This document shows positions 3-57,150 of a DNA stretch of 64,000 bases, one piece after another. Below the pieces are notes generated by a model that saw only the letters and a program-made list of their open reading frames with translations, was not told the origin of the DNA and ran no database searches. Position 1 is the stretch's first letter; every line of letters begins with the position of its first letter. A program made the translations under genes and the position numbers. This DNA comes from Gammaproteobacteria bacterium (GTDB lineage Bacteria > Pseudomonadota > Gammaproteobacteria > Burkholderiales > Rhodocyclaceae), in assembly GCA_018828385.1 (NCBI GenBank), contig JAHJVE010000021.1, forward strand, positions 160,005 to 224,004, given 5' to 3'.

Positions 3-935
3 GATGGCGCCTTGATTGATCCCTTCCACGGTCAACTGGATTTATCGGCCAAAATCCTCAGGCATGTCGGCCCGGCCTTTGCCGAAGACCCCGTGCGCAT
101 TCTGCGCATCGCCCGCTTTGCCGCCCGCTTCAGTGATTTTACGGTAGCCCCGGAAACGCTGACGCTGATGCGCGACATGGTAGCCAGCGGCGAAGTCGAT
201 CATCTGGTTGCCGAGCGCGTCTGGCAGGAACTGGCCACCGGCCTGATGGAAGACAGGCCGTCACGAATGTTCGAGGTGCTGCGCGACTGTGGCGCCCTGG
301 CCCGCTTGCTGCCGGAACTCGACGTCCTGTTCGGCGTCGCGCAACGAGCCGATTACCACCCCGAAATCGATACCGGCATCCACACCATGATGGTCGTCGA
401 CCAGTCGGCAAAACGTGGCTTCGCTTTGCCGGTGCGCTTTGCCGCGCTGACCCACGACCTCGGCAAGGGCACGACGCCGGCCGACATCCTGCCGCGCCAT
501 ATCGGCCACGAAGAGCGCAGCGTCCATCTCAGCGAAAAGCTGTGCGCCCGCTTGCGCGTGCCCGGCGACTGCCGCGATCTTGCCCTGCTCATGGCGCGCT
601 ATCACGGCAACGTTCACCGCGCCGCCGACTTGAAAGCCAGCACCATCGTCACGCTGTTTGAAAAAACCGATGCGCTGCGCCGGCCGGAACGCTTCCAGCA
701 ACTGCTCGATGCCTGCCTGTGCGACTACACCGGCCGACTGGGCTGGGAAAACCGCCCCTACGACAGCCCGCGCTACCTGCTCCAGGCATTGGCTACGGTC
801 AACGCCGTCGACGCGGGAAAAATCGCACTAGCCTGTCCCGACAAGGCAAAGATTCCCGAGCGCATTCACGCCGCCCGGGTCAATGCGCTCAGGAAATGGC
901 TAAATGAGCCGGGAGAGCAGCCAGAGCAACAATGA
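3..935 (+). CDS. cca: CCA tRNA nucleotidyltransferase / HD-domain multifunctional protein, 5' end off window
   Basis: Frame open from base 3; protein DPFHGQ..LRHVGPAFAEDPVRILRIARFAARF and HD-domain HTMMVVDQSAKR..LTHDLGKG typical of bacterial Cca. Confidence 0.9.
   Translation, partial: DGALIDPFHGQLDLSAKILRHVGPAFAEDPVRILRIARFAARFSDFTVAPETLTLMRDMVASGEVDHLVAERVWQELATGLMEDRPSRMFEVLRDCGALARLLPELDVLFGVAQRADYHPEIDTGIHTMMVVDQSAKRGFALPVRFAALTHDLGKGTTPADILPRHIGHEERSVHLSEKLCARLRVPGDCRDLALLMARYHGNVHRAADLKASTIVTLFEKTDALRRPERFQQLLDACLCDYTGRLGWENRPYDSPRYLLQALATVNAVDAGKIALACPDKAKIPERIHAARVNALRKWLNEPGEQPEQQ
25..57 (+). repeat. dispersed element, inside cca
   Basis: TCCACGGTCAACTGGATTTATCGGCCAAAATCC. Confidence 0.65.
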
Positions 936-1097
936 AAAGATGATCGTGCTGGCGAGCGGAAATGTGTAAGTTTGCCCACGAAAACGGAAAGCAAAATCCC
1001 CCGGCAATTTGCCGAATCGAATAAAGCGCGCCAGATGCGGGCCAATGATGCCCAGCAAAAAAATCGCCACAACCAGCGTCAACATCCACTTCAGCAT
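900..1097 (-). CDS. DUF2905-like small membrane protein
   Basis: MLKWMLTLVVAIFLLGIIGPHLARFIRFGKLPGDFAFRFRGQTYTFPLASTIIFSLLLWLLSRLI; two TM segments and LPGD/FPLAS pattern. Confidence 0.75.
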   Translation of the reverse strand: MLKWMLTLVVAIFLLGIIGPHLARFIRFGKLPGDFAFRFRGQTYTFPLASTIIFSLLLWLLSRLI

Positions 1098-1157
1098 TTG
1101 CCTTGCACCACAGGGTGAAAGCCGCATTAAATCACGCCTCACCCCGAACCGAGCCCC

Positions 1158-1964
1158 ATGCTAAAAACTCAAATCGTCGAAGGCCTCGAAGTCTTCTCCT
1201 GCCAGCCTTCCCGCAAGACCGGCAAGCCCGCACTGCTTTTCGTACACGGCGCCTTCGCTGGCGGCTGGATGTGGACCGAAACCTTCATGCCCTTTCTCGC
1301 CAAGGCCGGCTACCCGTGCTACGCGCTCTCCCTGCGCGGACACGCCGGCAGCGCCGGACGTGAGCATATCAATTGGCATTCGGTCAGCGACTACGTCGAC
1401 GACGTCAAGACCGTCGTCGACTGGCTCGGCGAAGCGCCGGTCCTGGTCGGTCATTCAATGGGCGGCTTCATCGTCCAGAAATATCTCGAACATCGCGCCG
1501 CGCCGGCCGTCGCCCTGGTCTGCTCGGTGCCACCGCAAGGCCTGATTGCCTCGCAGTTTCACCTGATGTTCAACAAACCGCAGCTGTTCCAGGAAATCAA
1601 CCAGATCATGGATGGCAAATACACCGACACCGGCACGCTACGTGAAGCGCTGTTCGCCGGCGAGGTTGACGAAGCCATGCTGGCTGCCTGGCTCAGCCGG
1701 ATGCAACCGGAATCCCACCGCGCGCTATGGGACATGTCGATGTTCAGCCTGCCCAACCTCTACGCCATGCACCGTCCGCCGATGCTCATCCTTGGCGCCG
1801 AAGACGACGTGCTGGTGCCTGCCTTCCTCGTCCAGACCACCGGGCAGACCTACGGCGAACACGTCCATATTTTCCGCGACATGGGCCACGCCGTGACCCA
1901 CGAAAAAGAATGGCCGCTCGTCGCGGCCACCTTGCGTGACTGGCTGGAAAAGATCAAACCTTGA
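1158..1964 (+). CDS. alpha/beta hydrolase
   Basis: LLFVHGAFAGGWMW, GHSMGG nucleophile elbow, terminal DMGHAVTHE. Confidence 0.85.
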   Translation: MLKTQIVEGLEVFSCQPSRKTGKPALLFVHGAFAGGWMWTETFMPFLAKAGYPCYALSLRGHAGSAGREHINWHSVSDYVDDVKTVVDWLGEAPVLVGHSMGGFIVQKYLEHRAAPAVALVCSVPPQGLIASQFHLMFNKPQLFQEINQIMDGKYTDTGTLREALFAGEVDEAMLAAWLSRMQPESHRALWDMSMFSLPNLYAMHRPPMLILGAEDDVLVPAFLVQTTGQTYGEHVHIFRDMGHAVTHEKEWPLVAATLRDWLEKIKP

Positions 1965-2145
1965 CGTCGACCGAGTTGCCCAGGTTGGACGGGTTGCTCG
2001 GCACTTGTGGCAAGGCTTCCAGCAACTGCATCGCGTTCTGCTCCTGAATGTCGATCGCCTTCTTGAGAACCATCGTGTTGGCGGCATCCCGGATCTCCAC
2101 AGGCGACATGGCGGCACTCAAACTACCTAAAGAAGAAACATCCAT
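1954..2145 (-). CDS. putative motility protein (YjfB-like)
   Basis: 63 aa MDVSSLGSLSAAMSPVEIRDAANTMVLKKAIDIQEQNAMQLLEALP; family resemblance. Confidence 0.65.
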   Translation of the reverse strand: MDVSSLGSLSAAMSPVEIRDAANTMVLKKAIDIQEQNAMQLLEALPQVPSNPSNLGNSVDVKV

Positions 2146-2208
2146 CTTGCGCTCACTCCAATTCGGTCACATCATTGGTCTACTGTAGTCGATATATTTG
2201 CCAATTCA

Positions 2209-3177
2209 ATGAGCAATTCGGAAAAAACGGGACCGCTGTCCGTCATCCTCGACGCCATCCGCGCCAAACGCGAGCGCAAGGCAGGCACGGGCAAGGATAT
2301 CGAAGAGCTGGAGGCGTCACTGCTTGCCGACATCGAGGCCTTTGATCTCGATGCGGCAGAGCGGCGCGCCCGACGCGAGTATCTGGCCAATTCCGGCGCC
2401 GGCATGACCGACCCGACCCTGGTTTTTCCCGAAATAGCGCCGGTCCGTCCGGCGGCCAAACCAGCGGTTGCACCGGTGGCCGAAGTCAAGCCGCCAGAGC
2501 CGGTTGCACCGGCCAAGGTCGACACCGGCAGCAGCCTCCTCGACCAGCTGCGCCAGCGCGCCGAAATACGGCAGCGGGAAATCCACAGCGAACTGGCCGA
2601 GCGGAGCTCGGCCAACGAAGCCATAGACCAAGCGCTCAAGCACCTCTTTTTCTATCTGCACGAACTGGTCCAGCAACTGAACATCATCAAGCCCGAGATT
2701 CCACGCGATTACCCGCTGATCGAACAGTTCGAGTTAAACCAATTGAGCTGGCAGGAAGGTTTCGCCGATTACCGGACCCAGTCGCAAAGTGCCGGAGCGC
2801 TGGTCGAGTTGGTCACCTTCTCGTATCACCTGAGCGGTGGCACAACCCTGCACATCGAACGCAACGGCCCGTCGGTGGAGCGCTTCCGGGCCATGCTTTT
2901 CGACTACGGCCTGCCGTTCACCTGCAAGGAATTCAAAAACGAGCGCAGTTATGTCGAACGCGCCGGGTTTGAGGTTCGTAGCGATGTCAGCGTCAGCGCC
3001 CGCTGGCGCGCCGATTTCTCAAAGGGTGTCATCGCTCTTGAAACACGCAACCTTGAACGCCTGGGCAGCGCCCTTTACAGCATCCGGCCACAGTGTATAG
3101 ATCAAGCCCTGCTCGATGATTTCGGCCGGCTCATCCTCGGTCAGCCGAACCGCTTCCGCGAGCTGGCCAAGCGCTAA
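2209..3177 (+). CDS. conserved hypothetical protein
   Basis: 322 aa complete ORF with no strong competing frame. Confidence 0.6.
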   Translation: MSNSEKTGPLSVILDAIRAKRERKAGTGKDIEELEASLLADIEAFDLDAAERRARREYLANSGAGMTDPTLVFPEIAPVRPAAKPAVAPVAEVKPPEPVAPAKVDTGSSLLDQLRQRAEIRQREIHSELAERSSANEAIDQALKHLFFYLHELVQQLNIIKPEIPRDYPLIEQFELNQLSWQEGFADYRTQSQSAGALVELVTFSYHLSGGTTLHIERNGPSVERFRAMLFDYGLPFTCKEFKNERSYVERAGFEVRSDVSVSARWRADFSKGVIALETRNLERLGSALYSIRPQCIDQALLDDFGRLILGQPNRFRELAKR

Positions 3178-3180
3178 TAG

Positions 3181-4341: not shown

Positions 4342-4437
4342 GGCAAGTTCAAAAAGGTGTCAATTTTACGGCCACAGCAAAAATTTCACGACCGGCTATG
4401 CTATTTTCGCACTCTGCACCAACCGGGGAGACTGACC

Positions 4438-5580: not shown

Positions 5581-5590
5581 TCCCAGCCTC

Positions 5591-8347: not shown

Positions 8348-8398
8348 TTCGACGCATAAACTGTCTGGCCATCGGGCGACTCAAGGTAAACTGGCCGC

Positions 8399-8435
8399 AT
8401 TTCAATTTCACGCCAAAAATACGGTTGACCGTAGG
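8399..8435 (-). repeat. dispersed element, intergenic
   Basis: Minus strand CCTACGGTCAACCGTATTTTTGGCGTGAAATTGAAAT. Confidence 0.8.
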
Positions 8436-8479
8436 AATGACGCCTATCAGTCCCGACGCCGCCATCTTTTCCGTGCACC

Positions 8480-16574: not shown

Positions 16575-17224
16575 CCGCCTACGTCCCGCCGCCCGATAAC
16601 GGCCTGCCGGTCATTTTTGCCGATGATTCGATCATCGTCGTGGACAAGCCGGCCGGGCTGCTCTCGGTGCCGGGGCGCGGCGAAGGCATGGACGATTGCC
16701 TGGCGGCGCGCGTCCAGGCGCGATTTCCCGATGCGCTGACGGTACATCGGCTCGACATGTCGACCTCCGGCCTGCTGGTTCTGGCGCGGGGCGCCGAGAT
16801 GCACCGGTTGCTGTCGCGTTTTTTCCGCGAGCGTCAGATCGACAAGCGTTACCTTGCCGTCGTCCATGGACTGATGGGCGAGGATAGGGGCGAGGTTGAG
16901 CTGCCGCTCATCTGCGACTGGCCGAACCGGCCGCGGCAGAAGGTCGATTTCGAGATCGGCAAGCCGTCGCTGACCCGGTTTCGTGTCGTCAGCCGCGATC
17001 CGGAGGCCAATACGACACGCGTCGAACTCGAGCCGGTGACTGGCCGCTCGCACCAGTTACGCGTCCACATGGCTTCGCTCGGCCACCCGATTCTCGGTGA
17101 CGATCTCTATGGCGGCGAAGCGACCGCGCTGGCCGATCGACTGCTGCTGCACGCCATGGATTTGGGCCTTTTTCACCCGTCGACCGTAGCCGCGTTGCAA
17201 TTTCATTCCGACGCCCCGTTCTGA
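16571..17224 (+). CDS. RluA-family pseudouridine synthase
   Basis: VVDKPAGLLSVPG, VHRLDMSTSGLLVLAR, EPVTGRSHQLRVHMASLGHPILGDDLYG. Confidence 0.88.
   Translation: MTAYVPPPDNGLPVIFADDSIIVVDKPAGLLSVPGRGEGMDDCLAARVQARFPDALTVHRLDMSTSGLLVLARGAEMHRLLSRFFRERQIDKRYLAVVHGLMGEDRGEVELPLICDWPNRPRQKVDFEIGKPSLTRFRVVSRDPEANTTRVELEPVTGRSHQLRVHMASLGHPILGDDLYGGEATALADRLLLHAMDLGLFHPSTVAALQFHSDAPF
17158..17190 (-). repeat. dispersed element (degenerate), inside RluA-family gene
   Basis: Minus strand GCTACGGTCGACGGGTGAAAAAGGCCCAAATCC. Confidence 0.55.
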
Positions 17225-18795: not shown

Positions 18796-19937
18796 GCCCC
18801 AACCAGGCGACGGGCGCGTCGGATTTGCCTGACACTGTGACGAGGCGGCGGCCGAAAGAGCCATGCACCGCCATCATTGTTACGACACATAAGGGCTGAC
18901 GGGCTGGCCAATCGCCCCTAAAATCAGGTCATGCCCCATCCCGGCCGTGGCCCCATCCTGCTTTCCCGCTACCTCGCCCTCGCCTGGGCAGGGCTGGTCA
19001 TCTATGCCAGCCTGCATCCGTTTGCCGGCTGGCGCGACACCGGCGTCTCGCCGATTGCCTTCCTCGAAGGCGGCTGGCCGCGCTACTGGACGGTCTTCGA
19101 TCTGGTTGCCAATGTCGCGGTCTACCTGCCTCTGGGCTTCTTTTTGACGCTGGCGCTGAGCAGTCTGCCCTGGCGTTTCTCCGCCCCGATCCTCGCCGTG
19201 CTGCTTACCGGCGGCGTCAGTTTTGGCCTGGAAACCGCGCAGACCTGGCTGCCGTCGCGCGTGCCCTCCAATCTCGACCTGGTCTGCAACACGTTGGGCG
19301 GGCTGTTCGGCGCGCTCTGGGCGCAACAGGTCGGGCCACGCGTCTTCGCCCGGCTGGCCGCGCTGGAACATCGGCTGATCGCCCCCATCCCGCACGCCGA
19401 ACTTGGCCTGACGCTGCTCGGATTGTGGCTATTCGTGCCACTCTCGCCGGAAACTCTGCTCTTCGGGGCCGGCGATTTGCGGCAAATTTTCGGGTTGACC
19501 GGTGCACTCCCGTTCGCCGCCGAGAGTTTCGTCATGATCGAGGCCACCATCACGGCCTTCAATGTCGTGGCGGTGGGCCTCATCGTCCGCATGCTGTGCG
19601 CCCGACTGCTTTTCGCCTATCTCATCGTGCCGCTCTTTCTGCTCCTCAGCCTGGTCGTCGCCACGCTCGCCGCAGCCGTTCTGGTCAGCCCGGCCGATGC
19701 GCTGGCCTGGCTGACGCCGGGGGCTCGGCTCGGACTTATTTTTGGCGGCGCCATCCTCGCCGTGACCATCGCCCTGCCGGCAACGCCGCGCCTGATCATC
19801 ACCGCGCTGACGCTGATGGCGGGTACAGTGCTGGTTAACATGGCGCCGCCCAACCCGTATTCGGACGCCGCGCTGGCCGTCTGGCGACAGGGGCACTTTC
19901 TCAATTTCAATGGTCTGACGCGACTGGTTGCAACGTT

Positions 19938-22655
<2,718 letters not shown>

Positions 22656-23601: not shown

Positions 23602-23629
23602 TTGCCCAGGGCCTGTGCCGCGAGTGACT

Positions 23630-23666
23630 GCTACGGTCAACCGGAAAAAACAGCCAATTTTGAAAT
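23630..23666 (+). repeat. dispersed element, intergenic, next to parS
   Basis: GCTACGGTCAACCGGAAAAAACAGCCAATTTTGAAAT. Confidence 0.9.
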
Positions 23667-23676
23667 CTCGTCATCG

Positions 23677-24682: not shown

Positions 24683-25587
24683 ACGCCAGCAATCTGCGCA
24701 AGACCTACGGCGACAGCGAAGTCGTCGCCGGTCTGTCGTTCGCCGTCGAACCCGGCACCTGCTTCGGCCTGCTCGGCCCGAACGGCGCCGGCAAGACGAC
24801 GACGCTGCGCCTCTGCCTCGGCCTGACCGCGCCGGACAGCGGCGACATCACGCTCAACGGCCACGCCATTCCCGACGACGCGCAGACGGCGCGAGCGCGC
24901 ATCGGCGTCGTGCCGCAATTCGACAATCTCGACCCCGACTTCACCTGCGCCGAAAACCTGCTCGTCTTCGGCCGCTACTTCGGGATCCAGGATGCCGACA
25001 TCCGCGCCAGGATCCCGCAACTGCTCGAATTCGCCGGCCTGTCGAGCAAGGCCGACGCCAAGCTGTCCACACTCTCCGGCGGCATGAAGCGCCGGCTGAC
25101 GCTGGCCCGGGCGATGGTCAATGATCCCGACATCATCTTCCTCGACGAGCCAACCACCGGCCTCGACCCGCAAGCCCGCCACCTGATCTGGGAACGCCTC
25201 AAGCAGCTCAAGTCGGCCGGCAAGACGCTGATCCTGACCACCCATTTCATGGACGAAGCCGAACGCCTGTGTGACACGCTGATCGTCATCGACCACGGCC
25301 GCAAGATCGCCGAAGGCAGCCCGCGCCAGCTCATCGCCGAACAGATCGAACCGCAAGTCGTCGAGGTTTTCGACGAATCCCACGGTCAACTGGAAAATTT
25401 CGTCAAAAATCAAAAGCACCTCGCCGAGCGCGTCGAGACCAGCGGCGAAACCGCCTTCTTCTACTGCCGCGACCCGCACGAACTGCTGGCCCGGCTGGCC
25501 GACACCGACGGTCTGCGCTACGTGCACCGCGCCTCCAACCTCGAAGACGTCTTCATCAAGCTGACCGGCCGCGAACTGCGCGATTGA
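24670..25587 (+). CDS. ABC transporter ATP-binding protein, NodI-like
   Basis: [53 protein letters not shown]. Confidence 0.88.
25379..25414 (+). repeat. dispersed element, inside nodI-like gene
   Basis: CCACGGTCAACTGGAAAATTTCGTCAAAAATCAAAA. Confidence 0.75.
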
Positions 25588-28714: not shown

Positions 28715-28755
28715 TTCGCCATTTTGACAGCTTCGCCGAGGCCATCTGAAGTGAT

Positions 28756-28792
28756 CCCACGGTCAACCGGAAAAAAGGGCAAAAATCGAAAT
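28756..28792 (+). repeat. dispersed element, intergenic
   Basis: CCCACGGTCAACCGGAAAAAAGGGCAAAAATCGAAAT. Confidence 0.9.
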
Positions 28793-28871
28793 CAACAGGG
28801 CACAGAACTTAAACGCTAGCGTCTTGGACAGAGGCTAAAATGCGTCTTCCATTTCGCTCGTTCCTGGCCCC

Positions 28872-29651: not shown

Positions 29652-29969
29652 ATGGAAATCCTGCTCGTCATCACCAACTGCCCGGACGAAGAAACCGCCA
29701 ACGCCATCGCGCTCGCCGCCGTTGAAGAAAAGCTGGCCGCCTGCGTCAACATCCTGCCGCGCGTCCAGTCGGTCTATCGCTGGCAGGGCAAGGTCGAATC
29801 GGCTTCCGAAATTCCGCTTTTTTTCAAGTCGACCGTAGCAAACTACCCGGCGCTCGAAGCCAGAATCCGCGAACTCCACCCCTACGAGTTGCCCGAAATC
29901 ATCGCCCTGCCGCTCAGCCACGGCTTGCCCGCCTACCTGAACTGGGTGGCGGCAGAAACGACCCAATGA
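29652..29969 (+). CDS. cutA: divalent cation tolerance protein
   Basis: ITNCPDEETANAIALAAVEEKLAACVNILPRVQSVYRWQGKVE, HPYELPEIIALP. Confidence 0.93.
   Translation: MEILLVITNCPDEETANAIALAAVEEKLAACVNILPRVQSVYRWQGKVESASEIPLFFKSTVANYPALEARIRELHPYELPEIIALPLSHGLPAYLNWVAAETTQ
29804..29839 (-). repeat. dispersed element (degenerate), inside cutA
   Basis: Minus strand GCTACGGTCGACTTGAAAAAAAGCGGAATTTCGGAA. Confidence 0.55.
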
Positions 29970-35027: not shown

Positions 35028-36391
35028 ATACCATTCCGCTGCTCGCCCACGGCGACCTCGACGCCGTTTTCGCCTGGACGCCGGAAGGCCCGATCAGTGT
35101 CGGCGACTACCTTGCCGACGCCCACTGGCTGGCCGAACAACTGCCGGCCACCGGCTATCTGCTCAACCTCTGCCACGACCGTTACCGCTTTGCCGTCGGC
35201 TTTGCGGCCGGCCTGCTGCGCGGCACAACCAGCCTGCAACCGTCATCGCAATCGCCGGAAACCCTCCGCCGCCTGCAGGCCGAGTACGCCGGGCTGGTTT
35301 GCCTGTGCGACGGCGCCGCCGACACGCTCGACCTGCCGCGCCTCGATTTCCCGGCCGATTTTTCGTACATTCCTACGGTCAACCGGAAAAAAGAGCCAAA
35401 ACCGAAAACGGCCATCCCACAGATTCCGGTCGACCACCTCGCCGCCATCCTGTTCACCTCCGGCTCGACCGGCCTGCCGCAGGCCCAGCGCAAGACCTGG
35501 GGCAAGCTGGTCGCCAACGGCCGTTCCGAAGCCATCGCCCTCAGCCTCGACCGCCAGCCGCACGCCATCGTCGGCACCGTCCCGGTCCAGCACAGCTACG
35601 GTTTCGAATCGACCTTCGTGCTCGCCCTGCACGGCGGCTGCGCCTTCTGGGCCGGCAAGCCGTTCTATCCGCAGGACATCGCCAGCGCGCTGGCCGCCGT
35701 GCCGCAGCCGCGCCTGCTCGTCACCACGCCTTTCCACCTATCGGCGCTGCTCTCCGCCGAAATCGAGCTGCCGCCGATCGACCTGCTGCTCTCCGCCACC
35801 GCCCCGCTGTCGACGACGCTGGCCGCCGAAGCTGAAGCCCGCACCGGCGCCCCGCTGCATGAAATCTACGGCTCGACCGAATCCGGTCAACTCGCCACCC
35901 GGCGCACCACGGCCGGCGCCGCATGGACGCCGCTGCCCGGCGTTCGACTGGAGCAGTCTGGTGACGACACTGTTGCCTGCGACGGCCACGTCGAAGGTCG
36001 CGTCGCCCTGTCCGACCTCATTGAGCTGCTGCCCGACCAGCATTTCCTGCTCCACGGCCGCCACGCCGACCTCGTCAATATCGCCGGCAAACGCACCTCG
36101 CTGGCCTATCTCAATCACCAGCTCGGCGCCGTGCCCGGCGTCGTCGATGGGGCCTTCTTCCTGCCCGACGAGGAAGGCCCGGACGGCATCACCCGCCTGA
36201 CCGCCTTCGTCGTCGCCCCCGGCCTGACTGCCCGGCAAGTCAGCGTCGAACTACGCCAGCGCATCGACGCCATCTTCCTGCCCCGGCCACTCGTCCTCGT
36301 CGACGAGCTGCCGCGCAACAGCACCGGCAAGCTGCCGCGCGCCGAATTGCAGGCGTTGTACGCCGAGAAGGTCAGCCATGGCGGACGCTGA
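35024..36391 (+). CDS. AMP-dependent acyl/aryl ligase
   Basis: LFTSGSTGLPQAQRKTWG, EIYGSTESGQLATRR, LPRNSTGKLPR. Confidence 0.88.
   Translation: MNTIPLLAHGDLDAVFAWTPEGPISVGDYLADAHWLAEQLPATGYLLNLCHDRYRFAVGFAAGLLRGTTSLQPSSQSPETLRRLQAEYAGLVCLCDGAADTLDLPRLDFPADFSYIPTVNRKKEPKPKTAIPQIPVDHLAAILFTSGSTGLPQAQRKTWGKLVANGRSEAIALSLDRQPHAIVGTVPVQHSYGFESTFVLALHGGCAFWAGKPFYPQDIASALAAVPQPRLLVTTPFHLSALLSAEIELPPIDLLLSATAPLSTTLAAEAEARTGAPLHEIYGSTESGQLATRRTTAGAAWTPLPGVRLEQSGDDTVACDGHVEGRVALSDLIELLPDQHFLLHGRHADLVNIAGKRTSLAYLNHQLGAVPGVVDGAFFLPDEEGPDGITRLTAFVVAPGLTARQVSVELRQRIDAIFLPRPLVLVDELPRNSTGKLPRAELQALYAEKVSHGGR
35372..35408 (+). repeat. dispersed element, inside AMP-ligase gene
   Basis: CCTACGGTCAACCGGAAAAAAGAGCCAAAACCGAAAA. 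Confidence 0.9.
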
Positions 36392-36683: not shown

Positions 36684-37591
36684 GCCGGAAAGAGCCGACC
36701 GACGCCGACTGGATGCGCCAGCAGGAACGCAGCAATCTGGCCATCCTCAAGCTCATGGTGTGGATTTCGCTGACCTTCGGCCGCCGGGTCGGTCGCCTCG
36801 TCCTCTACGGCATCGCCGCCTATTTCGTCCTGTTCGCCCCGCGCGCCCGCCGCTTCAGCCGCGACTACCTGCATCTGGCGCTCAATCGCTGGGCTGAATG
36901 GTCGGACGGTTTCCGCCACGTTTTCAGCTTCGCAAGCACGATCCACGACCGGATCTACCTGCTCAACGACCGTTTCGACCTCTTCGACATCGAAATCATC
37001 GGCAACGAAGCCGTCCAGAAAGTCGCCGCCGAACACCCCGGCGCCCTGCTCATCGGCGCCCACCTCGGCAGCTTCGAAGTGCTGCGCGCCGTCGGGCGAG
37101 GGCAGCAGGGCCTCAAGGTGGCGATGATGATGTACGAGGAAAACGCCCGCAAAATCAATTCGACCCTCGAGGCGATCAACCCGGCGGCGAGCCAGGACAT
37201 CATCCCGCTCGGCCGCATGGATTCGATGCTGCAGGCCCGCGACAAGCTCGACGAGGGCTATCTCGTCGGCATGCTGGCCGACCGCGGGCTGGGCGACGAT
37301 GCTACGGTCGACTGCGATTTTCTCGGAAAACCGGCACCGTTCCCGCTCGGCCCCTTCCGCATGGCGGCCATGCTGCGCCGCCCGGTTTTCTTCATGACCG
37401 GGCTGTACCTGGGTGGCAACCGCTACCAGCTGCATTTCGAGCCGCTGGCCGATTTTTCCCATACGACTCGTGAAGAACGCGACACTGCCATTCTGGCAGC
37501 CATGCAACACTACGCTGACCGCCTGACGTATTTTTGCCGTCTGGCGCCGTACAACTGGTTCAATTTCTTCGATTTCTGGCAGAAAAAATGA
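36680..37591 (+). CDS. LpxL/HtrB-like acyltransferase
   Basis: HLGSFE (HX4E), DRGLGDDATVDCDFLGKPAPFPLGPFRMA. Confidence 0.82.
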   Translation: MSRKEPTDADWMRQQERSNLAILKLMVWISLTFGRRVGRLVLYGIAAYFVLFAPRARRFSRDYLHLALNRWAEWSDGFRHVFSFASTIHDRIYLLNDRFDLFDIEIIGNEAVQKVAAEHPGALLIGAHLGSFEVLRAVGRGQQGLKVAMMMYEENARKINSTLEAINPAASQDIIPLGRMDSMLQARDKLDEGYLVGMLADRGLGDDATVDCDFLGKPAPFPLGPFRMAAMLRRPVFFMTGLYLGGNRYQLHFEPLADFSHTTREERDTAILAAMQHYADRLTYFCRLAPYNWFNFFDFWQKK

Positions 37592-38157: not shown

Positions 38158-40487
38158 GCGCGGCCGGCCGTGCCTTCCTGATCTGGCTGCTGGCCATGCT
38201 GGCCGGGGCGGTCATCGTCTGGAACAGCCATTTTTCGGCCGACATGTCCTTTTTCCTGCCGGGCAAGCCGAGTCCGGCGCAGCAGGTACTGGTCGACCAG
38301 TTGAAGGAGGGCGTCGTCTCCCGCCTGCTCATGGTCGCCATCGCCGGTGGCGAGGCGACGCAGCGGGCGGCCATTTCGCGCCAGTTGCACGGTCGACTGG
38401 AAAAATTGCCTGAATTCGTCGCCGTCGAGAACGGCCAGGCCGGCAGCCTCGATGCCGACCGCGACTTCCTGTTCCGCCACCGTTACCTGCTCAGCCCGGC
38501 CGTCAAGCCTGAACGCTTCACCGTGGACGGCCTGCGCGACAGCATCGCCAACAGCGTCGAGCTGCTCGCCTCGCCGGCCGGCATGATGATCAAGCCGCTG
38601 CTGCCACGCGACCCGACCGGCGAAATGATTGAACTGCTCTCCGGCCTCAACGCCGGCGCCCAGCCCAATGTGCGCGAGGGCGTCTGGGCCTCGCGCGACG
38701 GCGAACGGGCCATGCTGCTCATCCAGAGCGCCGCCCTCGGCTCCGATACCGATGCCCAGGAACGGGCCATCGCCACCATCCGCAGCCACTTCGCCGAGAG
38801 CGCCCAATACGCCGGCGTCAGCGACGCCCGTATCGAGATTTCCGGCCCCGGCGTTTTCGCCGTCAAATCGCGGGCAACGATCAAGAGCGAGGTCAGCAAG
38901 CTGTCGGCGATCAGCATGCTGGCCATCGTCGCCGTGCTGTTCTTCGTCTATCGCTCGGCCCGCCTGCTCAGCCTCGGCCTGCTGCCCGTGGTCAGCGGCG
39001 CGCTGGCTGGCGTCGTCGCCGTCAGCCTCGTTTACGGCACGGTGTTCGGCATCACCGTTGGCTTTGGCGCGGCGCTGATCGGCGAGGCGGTCGATTACTC
39101 GATCTATTATTTCGTCCAGTCCGGCCGGCTCGGCGCGGCTGAATGGCGGGCGCGCTTCTGGCCGACCATCCGGCTCGGCGTGCTGACCTCCGTTTGCGGC
39201 TTTGCGGCGCTGCTCTTTTCCGGCTTCCCCGGCCTCGCCCAACTCGGCCTCTATTCGCTGAGCGGCGTGCTCACCGCGGCGCTGGTCACCCGTTTCATCC
39301 TGCCCGCGCTGGCCGGCAACGACCATCCGATCCGCGACCTCGCCCACCTCGCACCGCCGCTCAAACGCGCCATCGGCGTCCTCCAGGGCCTGCGCTGGCC
39401 GATCATTCTGCTCACTGTCGCCGCTGCCACGCTCCTTGTCGTCAATCGCCATCAGCTCTGGCACCCGAACCTGTCGGCGCTGAGCACGGTCAGCGCCGAA
39501 GACTCGGCGGCCGACGCGGCACTGCGCGCCGACATCGGCGCCCCGGATTCGCGCTACATGGCGGTGATCACCGCCGCCGACCGCGAAGCTGCGCTGCAGG
39601 CGGCCGAACGGGCCGGGCAGAAGCTCGACGCGCTGGTCGCCGCGGGCGTCATCGGCGGCTACGACAGCCCGGCCCGCTTCCTGCCCAGCCAGGCCATGCA
39701 GGCCGCCCGCCGGGCCAGCCTGCCGGAGGCGAACGAGCTGGCAACGCGCCTGCAACTGGCGCAGGCCGATTCGCCGCTCGCCGCCAACAAGCTCGGCCCC
39801 TTCCTCGACGAAATTGCCCAGGCAAAGAAGCAGGGCAGCATCAGCCGCCAAACGCTCGACGGCACCAGCTTGGCGCTGGCCGTCGATTCGCTGCTGCTGC
39901 AGCGCCCGGACGGCTGGAGCGTGCTCTTGCCGCTGCGCCCGCCGGGGGGAGAGAAGGGCGTAGACATCGCCATCGAGCCGGTACGCGCCGCGCTGGCCGG
40001 CAGCGGTGCGCTGCTCATCGACATGAAGGTCGAGTTCGACCGGCTCTACAACGACTATCTCGACGAAGCGACGCTGCTCTCACTGGCCGGCTTCGTCGCC
40101 ATCGTCGCATTGCTCGCCGGCACCCTGCGTTCCGCCCGGCGGCTCGGCGCCGTCCTGTTGCCGCTGCTCCTCGCCGTCATCCTGATCATCGCCGGCGTCC
40201 ATCTGGCCGGCGAGAAGCTGCACCTCATGCACCTCATCGGCATGCTGCTGATCGTCGCCGTCGGCTCCAATTACGCCTTGTTCTTCGACCGGGCCGACAA
40301 GGAGCGGCGGCTCGATGCGCCGACCCTGGCCTCGATGGCCATCGCCAACCTGACCACCGCCATCGGCTTCGGCACGCTCGCTTTGTCCAGCGTACCGGTG
40401 CTCCACGCCGTCGGCATCACCGTCGGCCCGGGCGCCGTCCTGGCGCTGCTCCTGGCGGCCTGTTTTTCGGGGAAGGACCGTGACTGA
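38154..40487 (+). CDS. MMPL/RND-family exporter
   Basis: 777 aa, two TM blocks; GFGAALIGEAVDYSIYYFVQ, LIVAVGSNYALFFDR. Confidence 0.85.
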   Translation: MSAAGRAFLIWLLAMLAGAVIVWNSHFSADMSFFLPGKPSPAQQVLVDQLKEGVVSRLLMVAIAGGEATQRAAISRQLHGRLEKLPEFVAVENGQAGSLDADRDFLFRHRYLLSPAVKPERFTVDGLRDSIANSVELLASPAGMMIKPLLPRDPTGEMIELLSGLNAGAQPNVREGVWASRDGERAMLLIQSAALGSDTDAQERAIATIRSHFAESAQYAGVSDARIEISGPGVFAVKSRATIKSEVSKLSAISMLAIVAVLFFVYRSARLLSLGLLPVVSGALAGVVAVSLVYGTVFGITVGFGAALIGEAVDYSIYYFVQSGRLGAAEWRARFWPTIRLGVLTSVCGFAALLFSGFPGLAQLGLYSLSGVLTAALVTRFILPALAGNDHPIRDLAHLAPPLKRAIGVLQGLRWPIILLTVAAATLLVVNRHQLWHPNLSALSTVSAEDSAADAALRADIGAPDSRYMAVITAADREAALQAAERAGQKLDALVAAGVIGGYDSPARFLPSQAMQAARRASLPEANELATRLQLAQADSPLAANKLGPFLDEIAQAKKQGSISRQTLDGTSLALAVDSLLLQRPDGWSVLLPLRPPGGEKGVDIAIEPVRAALAGSGALLIDMKVEFDRLYNDYLDEATLLSLAGFVAIVALLAGTLRSARRLGAVLLPLLLAVILIIAGVHLAGEKLHLMHLIGMLLIVAVGSNYALFFDRADKERRLDAPTLASMAIANLTTAIGFGTLALSSVPVLHAVGITVGPGAVLALLLAACFSGKDRD
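38387..38418 (+). repeat. dispersed element (degenerate), inside MMPL exporter gene
   Basis: GCACGGTCGACTGGAAAAATTGCCTGAATTCG. Confidence 0.5.
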
Positions 40488-40494
40488 GCGCATT

Positions 40495-40531
40495 CCTACG
40501 GTCAACCGGGAAAATCGGCCAAAAATGAAAT
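40495..40531 (+). repeat. dispersed element, intergenic, next to parS
   Basis: CCTACGGTCAACCGGGAAAATCGGCCAAAAATGAAAT. Confidence 0.92.
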
Positions 40532-40535
40532 CTCA

Positions 40536-43908: not shown

Positions 43909-43914
43909 CCGATT

Positions 43915-43951
43915 GCTACGGTCAACCGGAAATATTGGCCAAAAATGAAAT
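43915..43951 (+). repeat. dispersed element, intergenic
   Basis: GCTACGGTCAACCGGAAATATTGGCCAAAAATGAAAT. Confidence 0.92.
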
Positions 43952-43957
43952 GCCGGG

Positions 43958-45624: not shown

Positions 45625-45653
45625 GAATGCATAGACCCGCCCCTTGCATCCTT

Positions 45654-45690
45654 GACACGGTGAACCGGAAATTTTGCCCAAAAATGAAAT
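45654..45690 (+). repeat. dispersed element, intergenic
   Basis: GACACGGTGAACCGGAAATTTTGCCCAAAAATGAAAT. Confidence 0.88.
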
Positions 45691-45696
45691 CCGGAT

Positions 45697-48631: not shown

Positions 48632-49062
48632 ACCAGACCTGGATCGCCGCCCACATCCCGCATCAAGGCAGCATGTGCCTGCTCGATGCGGTGAAGGAGT
48701 GGTCCGACTCGGCGATCACCTGCGGCGCCAGCAGCCATACCGACCGGAGCAATCCGCTGCGCGCAGAAGGCCGACTGGGCGCCGCCAACGGCATCGAATA
48801 CGCCGCCCAGGCCATGGCCATCCACGGCGCGCTGATTGCCGGTGACGACGGGGCACCGCGCCAGGGCTACCTGACCAGCGTGCGCAGCGTCAGCCTGCAT
48901 GTCGCGCGTCTCGACGACCTGCCGGGCGAACTCGATGTGTGCGCCGAGCGCCTGTCGGGCGACGCCAACAACATCCTCTACCAGTTCTCACTCAGCCACG
49001 CCGGCCGCTGCCTGCTCGAAGGCCGCGCCGCCGTGGTGCTCGACGCTGCGGCGCTGGGCTGA
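48625..49062 (+). CDS. hotdog dehydratase (ApeP/FabZ-like)
   Basis: IPHQGSMCLLDAVKEW, NGIEYAAQAMAIHGAL; GTG start overlapping upstream stop. Confidence 0.78.
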   Translation: MLDQTWIAAHIPHQGSMCLLDAVKEWSDSAITCGASSHTDRSNPLRAEGRLGAANGIEYAAQAMAIHGALIAGDDGAPRQGYLTSVRSVSLHVARLDDLPGELDVCAERLSGDANNILYQFSLSHAGRCLLEGRAAVVLDAAALG

Positions 49063-49066
49063 GAAT

Positions 49067-49103
49067 CCAACGGTCAACTGGAAATAATGGCCAAAAAGGA
49101 AAT
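49067..49103 (+). repeat. dispersed 37-bp element, immediately 5' of fabG
   Basis: CCAACGGTCAACTGGAAATAATGGCCAAAAAGGAAAT. Confidence 0.85.
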
Positions 49104-49106
49104 CTC

Positions 49107-50642: not shown

Positions 50643-50960
50643 TCAACCGGCGAGCAGGTCGCTGATTTCCCGGGTGCTGGTCGGCCGGACGACGCGGCCG
50701 ATTTCCTGACCGTCACGCATGAGGATCAGCGTCGGCCACAGTTTGACGCGAAAGCTACGCCCCAGCCGACGGCCCGGACCATCCTCGACCTTGATGTGGC
50801 GGAGTCCGGAAGCGGCCTGCACAGCGGCCTCGATGAAGGGCTGGGCGCCCTGGCAATGCGGGCACCAGTCGACGCCGAATTCGATGAGCAGGGCGCCGGG
50901 AAGGGCGTCGATCTCGGCCCGGTCCGGTGCCGTTTCAGGGTATTTGGCGACGTAGCTCAT
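50643..50960 (-). CDS. thioredoxin family protein
   Basis: EFGVDWCPHCQGAQPF; KLWPTLILMRDGQEIGRVVRP. Confidence 0.85.
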   Translation of the reverse strand: MSYVAKYPETAPDRAEIDALPGALLIEFGVDWCPHCQGAQPFIEAAVQAASGLRHIKVEDGPGRRLGRSFRVKLWPTLILMRDGQEIGRVVRPTSTREISDLLAG

Positions 50961-50970
50961 GTTTGTCTCC

Positions 50971-52922: not shown

Positions 52923-52943
52923 GGGAACAATGCGGACAGCGGT

Positions 52944-53726
52944 TCAGGCAGCGAATGCTACGGTCGACCGGAAATTTTGGCCAAATTCGAAATGAAAATA
53001 GGCGTCGAGTTCGGCCGTAAAGGCCTGGATGTTGGCTGGTGGCGAAAAGCGGCGACCAAGGCGGACGCGACAGGTGAGCGGCAACTCCGGGCGGCGAAAG
53101 AGGGGCCAGGACTTGCCGAGATAGGGCGTCGAAAATTCGATGAGCAGGGTCTGGACGTCGACCTTGCTGCGGTTGGCGATCAGGCCGATGCTCGGCGAGC
53201 TGGCATCGAAGGGGAAATCGAGCGTCCGCGAGCCTTCGGGAAAGATGACCAGATGGGCGCCACCGGCCAGATCCTCGCGCGCGCCGAGGATCAGCTTGAG
53301 CGCCACATCGTTGCGAATGTAGCTGGCCAGCCGCGCCGCCGCGCCGAACAGCAGGTTGTCCATGAGCGCCGCCTTCATGACGCAGACGGCGTTGGGCAGC
53401 CGGGAAACGATCATCACGGCGTCGAGCAGGGAAGGGTGGTTGGCGGCAACGATGAGCGGCCCCTGGTCGCGCAGCGTGTCGATCTCGCCCAGATCGAAGC
53501 GGCAGGCGCAAAAGACGGTCAGGATGCGCAGATAAATGCGAAAGCCCCAGGAAATCATGAGCCGCCCGAGCGGCCGGCCGAGACGCCGGGGCAACAGCAC
53601 ATTGAGCAGCAGCGCGCAGGGCAGCCAGATCAGGCAAAGCAGCGCCAGCGAGCCAAGACCGACCAGCATGGCTAGGTATTCGTAGGCGATCCACAACGGA
53701 TGGCCGGCGCTGCGGCGATCAGTCAT
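52944..53726 (-). CDS. 1-acyl-glycerol-3-phosphate acyltransferase-like
   Basis: AANHPSLLDAV (NHX4D), FPEGSRT; C-terminal residues encoded by dispersed element. Confidence 0.82.
   Translation of the reverse strand: MTDRRSAGHPLWIAYEYLAMLVGLGSLALLCLIWLPCALLLNVLLPRRLGRPLGRLMISWGFRIYLRILTVFCACRFDLGEIDTLRDQGPLIVAANHPSLLDAVMIVSRLPNAVCVMKAALMDNLLFGAAARLASYIRNDVALKLILGAREDLAGGAHLVIFPEGSRTLDFPFDASSPSIGLIANRSKVDVQTLLIEFSTPYLGKSWPLFRRPELPLTCRVRLGRRFSPPANIQAFTAELDAYFHFEFGQNFRSTVAFAA
52957..52993 (+). repeat. dispersed element, encodes C-terminus of acyltransferase
   Basis: GCTACGGTCGACCGGAAATTTTGGCCAAATTCGAAAT. Confidence 0.9.
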
Positions 53727-54570
53727 CGACCTTGACGCGGGTCGACGACTCTCCGAATACCCAGGTGAAGGCGACGCCGGCAGCGAAGTAATCCTTCTGG
53801 CGAACCAGCGGGCTGTCTTCGAAAGTGGCACCGCTCAAGTTGTCGTAACGCACGAAGCCGCCGACCCAGTATTTCGGGAAGCGCTTGGACAGGGCAACGA
53901 GATACTGCATGCCGGCATAGCCTGCCTTGGCCTCGTAGGCGGGACGGTCGGCCGTCGCGTACTGCGGGGCGACGCTGTAGTAGTAGGCGTGCTGGCGTTT
54001 GTCGCCGAACAGCGGGCCGGCCAGCATGCCGAGATTCCAGCCAGCCATGCCGGGAATGTCGGTGATGTCCATGTTGAGCTTGGGATGGAAAACCCAGCCG
54101 ATGTCCTTTGGCGATCCCTGAACGGTGATGGCGGCGCGCAGCGGCAGCAGCAGCTTGACGAAACGGGCCCGGTTTTCCGAACGCCAGAAGGTGACGTCCA
54201 TCTGCGGGCCGATCTCGAAAGTGCCCTCAAGATCCGGCATGCCGGCGCGCGCCGTGATGTCGTCGCTGCTCACCGGCGGCGAAAGGGCAAGGCTGACCGT
54301 CAGATCGACCCGGTCGGAATCGAAGAAGCTGCCGCGGATGCCCTGGCGGTCGGCCTTCAGGAAATCGCCGTGGTAAGTGAAATGCGGCACCGGCATGAAG
54401 AAATTGTGGGTCTGGTCCGAGCCGCGATACAAGGGGAAGCTGAAGGCGGCGGCACCGGCCCCGATTTCCCACAGGGGTTGATCGCCGGCGGCGTGCACGC
54501 CGCCCGCCATGGCGGCCAGCCCCAGTGCGGCCAGCACCGCCTTGCTCAAATTTTTCGACATGGCCATCAA
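53719..54570 (-). CDS. MipA/OmpV-like outer membrane protein
   Basis: Signal peptide; GAGAAAFSFPLYRGSDQTHNFFMPVPHFTYHGDFLKADRQGIRGSFFDSDR. Confidence 0.82.
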   Translation of the reverse strand: MMAMSKNLSKAVLAALGLAAMAGGVHAAGDQPLWEIGAGAAAFSFPLYRGSDQTHNFFMPVPHFTYHGDFLKADRQGIRGSFFDSDRVDLTVSLALSPPVSSDDITARAGMPDLEGTFEIGPQMDVTFWRSENRARFVKLLLPLRAAITVQGSPKDIGWVFHPKLNMDITDIPGMAGWNLGMLAGPLFGDKRQHAYYYSVAPQYATADRPAYEAKAGYAGMQYLVALSKRFPKYWVGGFVRYDNLSGATFEDSPLVRQKDYFAAGVAFTWVFGESSTRVKVDD

Positions 54571-55571
54571 GTTTCCTCCGGCGAGTGTGAGGCCATCGCC
54601 TCGATTTCCAGCAACAAATCGTGCCGGCAGATGTCAGCCTGCACGTAAACTATGTCAGCGGCACCAACCAGTGGCGCCAGGGTTTCGCGGATCGCCCGGA
54701 GATCATTGGCGTGGCGCACATAAACGCGGTAGGCAAGGTCGCCCAGTGCATATGGCGCCGACCGCGACAGCCGGTTGGCTTCGCCAAGCACCGCAGCGAC
54801 ATTGGCCATGGCCTCGCGACACTGCCCGACAACATCGCCCGGAAACACCGTTTCGTGGCCAACGATACTCGCCGTGCCCGAGATGAACAGGATTTCCTGG
54901 CCCGACGGATAAACCAGCGCACCACGCGAAAACGTAGGGCTGCGCGGGCCGTATTCGGCCGGGTAATTGTAGGCGCTGACCTGGCGCGGGTTCTCAAGCG
55001 GCACGGCCGGCGTCGCTCCGGCCATGAAGGCGATGCTGAGCGGGCTGCCGGCGAGACCGAGGGCACAGGCGGCCGGCACGTTGCCGGTGGCGCCGCGCCG
55101 GCTTTCGAGGAAGGCATCCTGACGGCCGATGTTGAACTGGCGATAACGCTCCAGGCCATCCGTTTCCAGATTGATCGCCGACAGGTAATTCCATACCCGC
55201 CACAGATGCGGCACCTGCTCGGCATCGAGCAGCCGGAAAATGCGCCGGTAGGCTTCCTCGCTGGCCGTCTGTAGGGCTGAAGCACCGGTCGTAGGCGAAA
55301 AATCGGCTTCGTCGAGTTCGATGACGCCGAACAGCAAACCATCGGCGCGCCGCCAGACAATATCTTCGCTACGCCCGGCGATGACCGGCTCGTCGCTCAG
55401 CCAGGTTTCATGGATGGCGGCGCTGGTTGCACCGAGCAGCGGCGCAAAAACTCGTTGAACGGGCCAACCCGGGAGCGCACCGTTTGATGGCTCGCCGATC
55501 AGGGCGCCACCGAGTTCCCGACTGGTTTCACGTGAAACCGCAGACGGCGAGGAGACGAACTGGAGTGCCAC
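54567..55571 (-). CDS. chorismatase / XanB2- and FkbO/Hyg5-like
   Basis: GTG start overlapping upstream stop (TAGTG); RVWNYLSAINLETDGLERYRQFNIGR, SGTASIVGHETVFPGDVVGQCREAMANVAAVL. Confidence 0.75.
   Translation of the reverse strand: MALQFVSSPSAVSRETSRELGGALIGEPSNGALPGWPVQRVFAPLLGATSAAIHETWLSDEPVIAGRSEDIVWRRADGLLFGVIELDEADFSPTTGASALQTASEEAYRRIFRLLDAEQVPHLWRVWNYLSAINLETDGLERYRQFNIGRQDAFLESRRGATGNVPAACALGLAGSPLSIAFMAGATPAVPLENPRQVSAYNYPAEYGPRSPTFSRGALVYPSGQEILFISGTASIVGHETVFPGDVVGQCREAMANVAAVLGEANRLSRSAPYALGDLAYRVYVRHANDLRAIRETLAPLVGAADIVYVQADICRHDLLLEIEAMASHSPEET
55524..55539. promoter_or_regulatory. parS-like ParB-binding site within chorismatase CDS
   Basis: GGTTTCACGTGAAACC, perfect 16-bp palindrome. 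Confidence 0.85.
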
Positions 55572-56905
55572 TATGCGTTGTAAACGACCGCGTCGTCGAC
55601 CTTGCGAATGTTGAACTTGCGCTGTTTCCAACCCATGAAGGCTTTCTTCGGCTGGGTGATGTTGGCGATGTAGTAGAGCATCTTGAAGGCAAAGATCGAC
55701 GACCAGATCGGTGTCTTCCCGAAGATGTCCCCGGCCAGCATGGACAGCACGGCTTCCTTGGCGCGGAACAGGTTGCGCGGACCCATGAAGAATTCGCGCA
55801 TGATCGGGTTGGTAACGCGATAAATGAACCACGAGAACTCCTTCGGCCCGTGCTTCATGAGTTTGTCGAAACGCTTGAGCGCCGCCGTCGCCTTGGCCGG
55901 ATTTTTCAGACAGGTGTCGATCGCTTCGGCCGCGATGACGCCGCTGTTCATGGCAAGCAACACGCCGGAGGAAAATACCGGGTCGATGAAGGCGTAGGCG
56001 TCGCCGAGCATGACGTAGTTGTTGCCGTGATTGCGCTCGGAAACGTAGGAGAAGTTGCCGGTTGCCTCGATTTCGTTGATCAGCTTGGCATCCTTGAGGC
56101 GCTCAGTGAGTTTCGGGCACTGGGCAAAACCGTCGCGCAGGAATTGTTCGAGGCTGCGCTCACCCTTGGTTTTCATGTAGTAGGGCCAAGTCACCATGCC
56201 GATGCTGGTGATGTCGTTCTGCATCGGGATGAACCAGAACCAGCCGTGCTCGAACCAGAAAATGGTGATGTTGCCTTCGGCTACGCCTTCGTGGCGCTTG
56301 CAGCCAGTGAAATGACCGTAGATGGCAGAGCTGTTGTGCTTGGGATTGCGGTGCTTGATCTGGAAGCGGTTGGCCAGGAAAGTATCGCGGCCCGAGGCAT
56401 CGACGACGAAGCGGGCCTGCCATTCGGTTTCACGGCCGTCGTCGTGCACGGCGCGGACGGCTGCGCTGTTGTCAGGCAGGAAATCGACCGACTTGGCCTT
56501 GCAGCCTTCATGGACCTCGACGCCTTTTTTCTCGGCGTTGCGGATCAGGATGGTATCGAACTCGTCGCGCTTGACCTGATAGGCGTGCGGCATGGACTTG
56601 TCCCAGGCCTCGGCAAAAACGAAGACCGAAGACATGTCATGGGTCGGCGATACGAACTCGGCACCCGGCTTGTGCATGCCGATGGCCTTCACCTCTTCGG
56701 CGATGCCCATACGCTCGAAGAGCGGCAGATTGGCCGGCAACAAGGATTCGCCGATATGAAAACGCGGGTGATGTGCCTTTTCCAGCATCACCACCTTGTA
56801 ACCCTTTTCAGCCAGCATCGGCCCCACGGTCGACCCGGCCGGGCCGCCACCGATGACGAGCACATCGCACTGCCGACGCTCAACTCCCTGCACTTGTTCC
56901 ATCAT
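55571..56905 (-). CDS. FAD-dependent oxidoreductase, flavin halogenase-like
   Basis: VIGGGPAGSTVG dinucleotide motif, HIGESLLP, GWFWFIP (WxWxIP halogenase motif). Confidence 0.82.
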   Translation of the reverse strand: MMEQVQGVERRQCDVLVIGGGPAGSTVGPMLAEKGYKVVMLEKAHHPRFHIGESLLPANLPLFERMGIAEEVKAIGMHKPGAEFVSPTHDMSSVFVFAEAWDKSMPHAYQVKRDEFDTILIRNAEKKGVEVHEGCKAKSVDFLPDNSAAVRAVHDDGRETEWQARFVVDASGRDTFLANRFQIKHRNPKHNSSAIYGHFTGCKRHEGVAEGNITIFWFEHGWFWFIPMQNDITSIGMVTWPYYMKTKGERSLEQFLRDGFAQCPKLTERLKDAKLINEIEATGNFSYVSERNHGNNYVMLGDAYAFIDPVFSSGVLLAMNSGVIAAEAIDTCLKNPAKATAALKRFDKLMKHGPKEFSWFIYRVTNPIMREFFMGPRNLFRAKEAVLSMLAGDIFGKTPIWSSIFAFKMLYYIANITQPKKAFMGWKQRKFNIRKVDDAVVYNA

Positions 56906-57114
56906 TGAAACCCTTATTTTTTTCTCTGCGGCGGCGATGAGTTATATGCCTTTGTAGGTCATGGTGCCCACTGTTTTGGAATGGTCGTCGATTCTGCTGA
57001 CCTTCCCTTGCCCCAATACAAATAAGTTTCGCCGAACCAACCGACAGGCCCGGTCTTCAACATCAGCGCTCCGGCTGGCCATTTTCCGGTCTGCTTTCGA
57101 TGCTCTTGCAGATT

Positions 57115-57150
57115 GCTACGGTCAACCGGAAAAAACGGCCAAAATCGAAA
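57115..57150 (+). repeat. dispersed element, intergenic
   Basis: GCTACGGTCAACCGGAAAAAACGGCCAAAATCGAAA. Confidence 0.92.

What the first reader, a model, noticed from the sequence alone, without database searches (positions are those of the whole stretch)
25..57150. Dispersed 37-bp sequence family NNTACGGTCAACCGGAAAWWWYGGCCAAAAWYGAAAT, about 16 copies in 64 kb
Read by eye: strong copies at 8399, 21493, 23630, 25379, 28756, 35372, 40495, 43915, 45654, 49067, 52957, 57115; weaker copies at 25, 17158, 29804, 38387. Conserved length and spacing, both strands, both intergenic and intragenic positions, no adjoining mobile-element structure or tandem arrangement. This does not look like a REP hairpin, IUS or CRISPR spacer. 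I do not recognise it as a named element, so it is a candidate undescribed genome-wide signal sequence.
Basis: seen in the sequence. Interest (0 to 1): 0.88.

Follow-up and report, generated by a model that had tools for sequence, protein, structure and literature searches.

The report
Uptake-signal-like DNA motif in Azonexus/Dechloromonas
Hundreds of copies of a 42-base DNA sign are scattered through the genomes of many Azonexus/Dechloromonas-type water and soil bacteria; each group of species has its own version, and the sign looks and evolves like the self-recognition tags that Haemophilus and Neisseria use when taking up DNA, which had been described only in those two families.

Summary
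The repeat is real. In the 4.3 Mb genome the 15-base core has 709 matches (up to 2 mismatches), against 14 for the reversed control. The full element is about 42 bp: a core TNCYACGGTCRACCGG plus A/T tracts at +12..17 and +23..28, one helical turn apart. It is not a mobile element: copies inside genes align without an insertion-sized gap to homologues lacking it, so they arose in place by substitution. It lies on both strands, is enriched between genes, avoids spacings under 1 kb, and is absent from prophage/island stretches. A/T-tract positions mutate A<->T rather than to G/C (OR 41, P 5e-26). It is confined to one Rhodocyclaceae genus: about 44 of 77 species carry it, the others have 0-14 matches. 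Clades carry different dialects (two well defined, several provisional) sharing the inner core and tracts; some species lost it or keep relics. This is the anatomy and evolution of Pasteurellaceae USS / Neisseriaceae DUS. Best explanation: an undescribed DNA-uptake signal for natural transformation. Not shown: uptake, receptor, competence. ComEC does not track the motif, and ComEA was not detected in some carriers. An intracellular genome-wide binding site is the main rival.

The parts
20..63 (+). motif copy, 36 bits, inside a gene
8397..8440 (-). motif copy, 36 bits, intergenic
17152..17195 (-). weak copy, 20 bits, intragenic; gap-free in most motif-poor homologues
19467..19510 (-). weak copy, 27 bits, intragenic; gap-free in all homologues
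21491..21534 (-). strong copy, 57 bits, inside a P-type ATPase gene; D2 species (G163, G188, G170) carry the dialect-2 form at the same place
23625..23668 (+). strong copy, 61 bits, intergenic
25374..25417 (+). strong copy, 54 bits, intragenic; gap-free against most homologues lacking the motif
28751..28794 (+). strong copy, 59 bits, intergenic
29801..29844 (-). copy, 40 bits, intragenic; gap-free in every homologue
35367..35410 (+). strong copy, 59 bits, inside an acyl-CoA-ligase-like gene, in a length-variable stretch
37296..37339 (+). weak site, 14 bits, intragenic; may be chance
38381..38424 (+). copy, 35 bits, inside an RND/MMPL-like transporter gene; gap-free in every homologue
40490..40533 (+). 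strong copy, 61 bits, intergenic
43910..43953 (+). strong copy, 67 bits, intergenic, near-consensus
45649..45692 (+). copy, 49 bits, intergenic
49062..49105 (+). strong copy, 59 bits, intergenic; spacer shorter in motif-free species
52952..52995 (+). strong copy, 60 bits, at a gene edge
57110..57153 (+). strong copy, 66 bits, intergenic

Best explanation
The element is a DNA-uptake signal sequence: a self-recognition tag for natural transformation, analogous to Pasteurellaceae USS and Neisseriaceae DUS. Proposed mechanism: a surface receptor of the competence type IV pilus binds the core (CYACGGTCRACCGG in dialect 1). The two downstream A/T tracts, one helical turn apart, let the duplex bend or open so that it can be pulled through the secretin pore and on through ComEC. 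Fragments carrying the motif are taken up and recombined more often, so alleles bearing it spread by this bias. That would produce hundreds of strong-consensus copies by substitution in place, mostly in permissive DNA. When receptor specificity shifts, the genome drifts to a new dialect; when uptake is lost, copies decay. Shown here: the anatomy, genome-wide count, in-place origin of intragenic copies, A/T-tract conservation, spacing, absence from islands, dialects following the tree, nested losses. Inferred: uptake, the receptor, and the drive.
For: Count 709 vs 14 reversed control; both strands 334/375. Eleven dialect-1 genomes with 193-581 copies at <=1 mismatch. Gap test as used for USS by Redfield et al. 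(PMC1626085): 62 coding sites, 50 with a gap-free motif-free homologue, none of 409 pairs with a 30-48 nt deficit. A/T tract substitutions 33 A/T: 9 G/C vs 80: 903 in flanks, P 5e-26; core columns 95-100% identical vs about 90% flank. Only 6 of 81 spacings under 1 kb vs 15 expected (P 0.0016). Intergenic enrichment and frame preference. Long gaps are lower-GC; two hold phage integrases. Dialects: D1 in one clade, D2 in another clade with 249-429 copies, D2 copies at the same orthologous places as D1. Relics G112, G167, G168 and loss in G141 lie inside the D1 clade. Core plus two AT tracts matches USS descriptions (PMC12616744; PMC1626085). ComEC and ComEA present in the own genome.
Against: No uptake data and no receptor found. 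The Pfam DUS-receptor family (PF16732) occurs in 71 of 77 genomes regardless of the motif. ComEC integrity does not track the motif: split in about 7 of 42 carriers and 7 of 29 non-carriers, read by eye. No ComEA above the curated cut-off in carriers G191, G144, G157, G158 and G188; some are drafts, but G191 is one contig. Density 0.2-0.3 per kb is several times lower than in H. influenzae (about 1 per kb, PMC7811141). Intergenic copies sit in spacers of different length from relatives, so their origin by substitution is not shown.
Confidence: 0.72

Rival explanations
1. The motif is a binding site for an intracellular protein that organises or marks the chromosome (a nucleoid-associated, condensin-loading, segregation or repair factor).
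For: Any genome-wide binding site evolving in place would give gap-free intragenic copies, shape-conserved A/T tracts and absence from islands. Broad even distribution in the chromosome of G133.
Against: No replichore polarity: exact '+' copies in G133 are 100 of 184 in the first half, unlike KOPS or Chi; no clustering at origin or terminus, unlike parS, matS or Noc/SlmA sites. Patchy presence in about 44 of 77 species, rapid dialect change and complete loss in nested species would be odd for a conserved chromosome system. The consensus is unusually long and strong (39 perfect to 43 one-mismatch 12-mers).
Confidence: 0.18
2. A short mobile repeat (REP, MITE or RAYT-type element) that spreads by insertion.
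For: Very uniform copies of fixed length, high copy number, lineage-specific abundance; some intergenic copies lie in spacers 15-40 bp longer than in relatives.
Against: Intragenic copies show no insertion-sized gaps (0 of 409 pairs). Variation is restricted to A/T in the tracts. No terminal inverted repeats or target duplications seen. Copies at orthologous places in D1 and D2 species carry different dialects, which insertion does not predict.
Confidence: 0.05
3. A regulatory RNA or DNA element (promoter, operator, terminator or riboswitch).
For: Enriched between genes.
Against: About half of the copies lie inside genes, on either strand; intergenic and edge copies occur between tandem (21), convergent (11) and divergent (8) genes with no clear preference for starts or ends. 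No Rfam match in the window.
Confidence: 0.04

Closest known systems
Pasteurellaceae uptake signal sequence (USS; Hin AAGTGCGGT and Apl ACAAGCGGT types)
   Same: Core plus two downstream A/T-rich segments about a helical turn apart; hundreds to thousands of copies; strong consensus; in-place origin; both strands; enriched in non-coding DNA; subclade dialects; decay in lineages losing competence (PMC1626085, PMC12616744). The extended Hin/Apl sequences contain GCGGTCAA; several dialects here contain TGCGGTCRAC.
   Different: Longer core (D1 TNCYACGGTCRACCGG), first A/T tract about half a turn further from CGGT, third short A tract, density about one quarter, different class of bacteria, uptake untested.
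Neisseriaceae DNA uptake sequence (DUS; eight dialects, receptor ComP)
   Same: Betaproteobacteria; genome-wide tag; dialects following phylogeny; permissive sites of the core genome; absent from recently acquired genes (PMC2397512, PMC12616744).
   Different: DUS is a continuous motif of up to about 13 nt without A/T tracts, unrelated in sequence (GCCGTCTGAA); ComP-family presence does not track the motif here.
KOPS, Chi and other polar chromosome motifs
   Same: Short genome-wide signals evolving in place.
   Different: This motif is not replichore-polar and is 42 bp long.

Membership tests
DNA-uptake signal sequence (USS/DUS kind) | Strong over-representation genome-wide on both strands | tested here: met
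   709 vs 14 control, 334/375 strands
DNA-uptake signal sequence (USS/DUS kind) | Arises by mutation in place, not insertion | tested here: met
   Coding copies: 50 of 62 with a gap-free motif-free homologue, 0 of 409 pairs with an insertion-sized gap; intergenic copies not resolved
DNA-uptake signal sequence (USS/DUS kind) | Unusually strong consensus, perfect copies about as common as or commoner than one-off copies | tested here: met
   12-mer 39 perfect: 43 single mismatch, reversed control 1: 11; 15-mer in G133 379 exact of 581 at <=1 mismatch
DNA-uptake signal sequence (USS/DUS kind) | Absent from recently acquired DNA, enriched in permissive or non-coding DNA | tested here: met
   Three gaps of 20-37 kb with lower GC, two with phage integrases; none inside the Tn7-like insert of G169; 39% of copies intergenic where about 17% of DNA is non-coding
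DNA-uptake signal sequence (USS/DUS kind) | Clade-specific dialects | tested here: met
   D1 and D2 clades; D3 in G147; further provisional dialects
DNA-uptake signal sequence (USS/DUS kind) | Carriers have competence machinery | tested here: inconclusive
   ComEC in 76 of 77 genomes whether or not they carry the motif; ComEA not above cut-off in a few carriers
DNA-uptake signal sequence (USS/DUS kind) | DNA with the motif is preferentially taken up | not testable with these tools
   needs an uptake assay
DNA-uptake signal sequence (USS/DUS kind) | A cognate surface receptor (ComP or another minor pilin) | tested here: inconclusive
   PF16732 in 71 of 77 genomes, not correlated with the motif; other minor pilins not tested
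Pasteurellaceae USS proper | 9-bp core AAGTGCGGT or ACAAGCGGT | tested here: not met
   Cores here are TNCYACGGTCRACCGG and dialects; only (T)GCGGTCA is shared by some dialects
Mobile short repeat (REP/MITE) | Copies are insertions | tested here: not met
KOPS/Chi-type polar motif | Orientation follows replication | tested here: not met
   '+' copies evenly split along G133

The most novel reading that the evidence does not exclude
An uptake-signal system in environmental Rhodocyclales with many dialects, whose inner core (GCGGTCR in several dialects) and A/T tracts match the Pasteurellaceae USS because the receptor, a minor pilin, is homologous. Uptake specificity would then be an old, repeatedly lost and re-tuned trait of Proteobacteria rather than two isolated inventions.
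Probability: 0.15. Interest if true: 0.92.

Novelty: new variant of a known kind. Interest (0 to 1): 0.82.

Why it matters
Sequence-specific DNA uptake is described only for Pasteurellaceae and Neisseriaceae, mostly host-associated bacteria, and why it exists (mate recognition, repair, selfish drive) is unsettled. A third system in free-living bacteria, with several dialects, partial decay and complete losses inside one genus of 77 species, would give a natural experiment on how uptake specificity arises, shifts and dies. It would also give a dialect-receptor co-variation set for finding the receptor, and suggest that these bacteria are naturally transformable, which would help their genetics.

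Tried and rejected
(1) Replichore polarity: the window and the first listing for G133 looked strand-polar, but the listing is strand-sorted and '+' copies are spread evenly. (2) Mobile element: rejected for coding copies by the gap test. (3) Rfam RNA family: none. (4) ComP_DUS receptor family as the co-varying gene: present nearly everywhere. (5) comEC integrity as predictor of the motif: no clear association. (6) Reversed-sequence k-mer control: uninformative, because reversal preserves mirrored k-mer counts. (7) Literature: no paper joins uptake sequences with Dechloromonas or Rhodocyclaceae, and the core string appears in none; subscription papers are not covered.

Full report
OBSERVATION. 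The core TACGGTCAACCGGAAA with up to three mismatches has 15 matches in the window against 0.44 in dinucleotide shuffles. In the whole 4.3 Mb genome the 15-mer ACGGTCAACCGGAAA with up to two mismatches has 334 forward and 375 reverse matches, against 7 and 7 for the reversed pattern. A weight matrix spanning 44 columns gives 82 sites at >=14 bits in a 400 kb stretch of the own genome and none in the reversed sequence.

ANATOMY. The conserved stretch runs from about -7 to +34 around the core A: GATTGCY-ACGGTCRACCGG-AAAWWW-nGGCC-AAAAWY-GAAATC. CGGTC and AC at +7/+8 are nearly invariant. Two A/T tracts are centred near +14.5 and +25, about one helical turn apart, with a short third tract at +30..33. 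Within the tracts A and T interchange freely. In comparisons of window sites with dialect-1 relatives, 33 of 42 substitutions at A/T tract positions keep A/T, against 80 of 983 in the flanks (odds ratio 41, P 5e-26). This is selection on DNA shape or melting, not neutral decay of a repeat.

ORIGIN OF COPIES. Window copies were aligned with orthologous DNA from 21 species of the genus. Several intragenic copies align without gaps in nearly all motif-free homologues (for example 25374, 29801, 38381, 19467). Over the eleven dialect-1 species, 62 coding sites gave 409 alignments with motif-free homologues: 50 sites have at least one gap-free homologue, 65% of pairs have zero net length change, and none shows a 30-48 nt deficit. 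Only 51% of these pairs are gap-free against 91% of coding controls, so copies prefer length-variable (permissive) stretches. Intergenic copies are rarely gap-free (2%, intergenic controls 45%), and 18% of pairs have a spacer 30-48 nt shorter in the relative (controls 5%); their mode of origin is unresolved. The coding result is the same test, with the same outcome, that Redfield et al. used to show USS are not insertions (PMC1626085).

DISTRIBUTION. In the 400 kb stretch, 42 copies are coding, 32 intergenic and 8 at edges although 83% of the DNA is coding by a simple gene finder. Strong copies are mainly intergenic and weak ones mainly coding; coding copies favour particular frames; intergenic copies show no preference for tandem, convergent or divergent spacers. 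Only 6 of 81 spacings are under 1 kb (15 expected, P 0.0016), and none in the window (4.2 expected, P 0.004). The three longest gaps (22, 37 and 20 kb) have lower GC. Two hold phage integrases; the third holds BREX- and TerB-type genes. Copies are not replichore-polar. C6 has an unexplained strand excess (52 vs 30), not seen genome-wide (334 vs 375).

TAXONOMIC RANGE AND DIALECTS. Among 121 family genomes the dialect-1 core is abundant only in the own genome. Among 77 species of the genus it is bimodal: eleven genomes with 193-581 copies at <=1 mismatch, a few with 48-99, the rest 0-34. At the same orthologous positions, G163, G188 and G170 carry a second dialect, AATGCTACGGTCG-nnnnn-AAAWWW-nGGCC-AAAWTC. 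Its core has 249-429 copies in those three genomes and 0-30 in most others; some dialect-1 genomes have up to 89 because the cores overlap. G147 carries a third, GCTGCGGTCRACGG. A sequence-only model of the three dialects, not trained on the other genomes, then found 31-82 significant matches in about 44 of 77 genomes (only the best 82 candidates per genome are scored) and 0-14 in the others. In the family it stays confined to this genus: other genera 0-3. Re-estimation in fetched stretches suggests further dialects (TTGTCGCGGTCGAC in G157; GYTGCGGTCRACGCC in G155, G164, G181 and G135; TTTYCACGGTCGACCGTGAAAA in G122). Because that procedure adapts to its input, these are provisional. A protein tree of the region groups dialect 1 in one clade and dialect 2 in another. 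Relic-bearing G112, G167 and G168 and nearly motif-free G141 nest inside the dialect-1 clade, and G121, G129 and G145 form a motif-free clade; some inner supports are low. Record names of dialect-1 contigs are Dechloromonas, Azonexus, Azonexaceae and Rhodocyclaceae.

MECHANISM. Of known systems, this combination is that of uptake signal sequences: core plus two A/T segments (PMC12616744; PMC7811141), in-place origin and dialects (PMC1626085), permissive sites in core genome and absence from acquired genes (PMC2397512). The own genome encodes ComEC and ComEA. What is not shown: uptake, receptor, competence. The DUS-receptor family does not co-vary, ComEC breakage is not clearly associated with the motif, and some carriers show no ComEA above cut-off, including the single-contig G191. 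I put the uptake-signal explanation at 0.72 and an intracellular genome-wide binding site at 0.18.

RELATION TO USS. The extended Haemophilus and Actinobacillus signals contain GCGGTCAA, and several dialects here contain TGCGGTCRAC. Eight or nine shared bases among several dialects could be convergence or chance; common receptor ancestry is possible but untested. The motif is not a member of the Pasteurellaceae USS as defined by its 9-bp cores.

NOVELTY. No earlier report was found in 5.39 million open papers. If confirmed it would be a third lineage with uptake signals, in free-living bacteria.

Noticed in passing
G169:C1:2720194-2765330 (L240-L242); also G154:C33, G121:C1, G175:C1, G129:C8, G130:C22, G167:C9, G193:C1: comEC is split by 20-64 kb of intervening DNA in several species. 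In G169 the insert carries an rve/Mu-type transposase and TniQ (Tn7-like) with methylase and ThiF/JAB cargo, GC 0.56, and no motif copies, so comEC looks like a recurrent landing site.
   Followed up: partly
window 23678, 40538, 55526: Three parS-like palindromes (GTTCCACGTGAAAC, TTTCACGTGAAA) and a cumulative GC-skew minimum near 49-50 kb; with yidC and mnmE at 60-63 kb the window probably lies close to the replication origin.
   Followed up: partly
L236-L239 (G122), L292 and L294 (G174): A palindromic variant TTTTCACGGTCGACCGTGAAAA occurs in G122 (and G174), sometimes as close inverted pairs; possibly a dialect doubling as terminator.
   Followed up: partly
G000:C6:230435-267691: A 37 kb motif-free, low-GC stretch with BrxC/D-like, TerB-like and penicillin-binding/OXA-like genes: probable genomic island.
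   Followed up: partly
G000:C6:1-400000: Motif copies show a local strand excess (52 plus, 30 minus) not seen genome-wide; unexplained.
   Followed up: no
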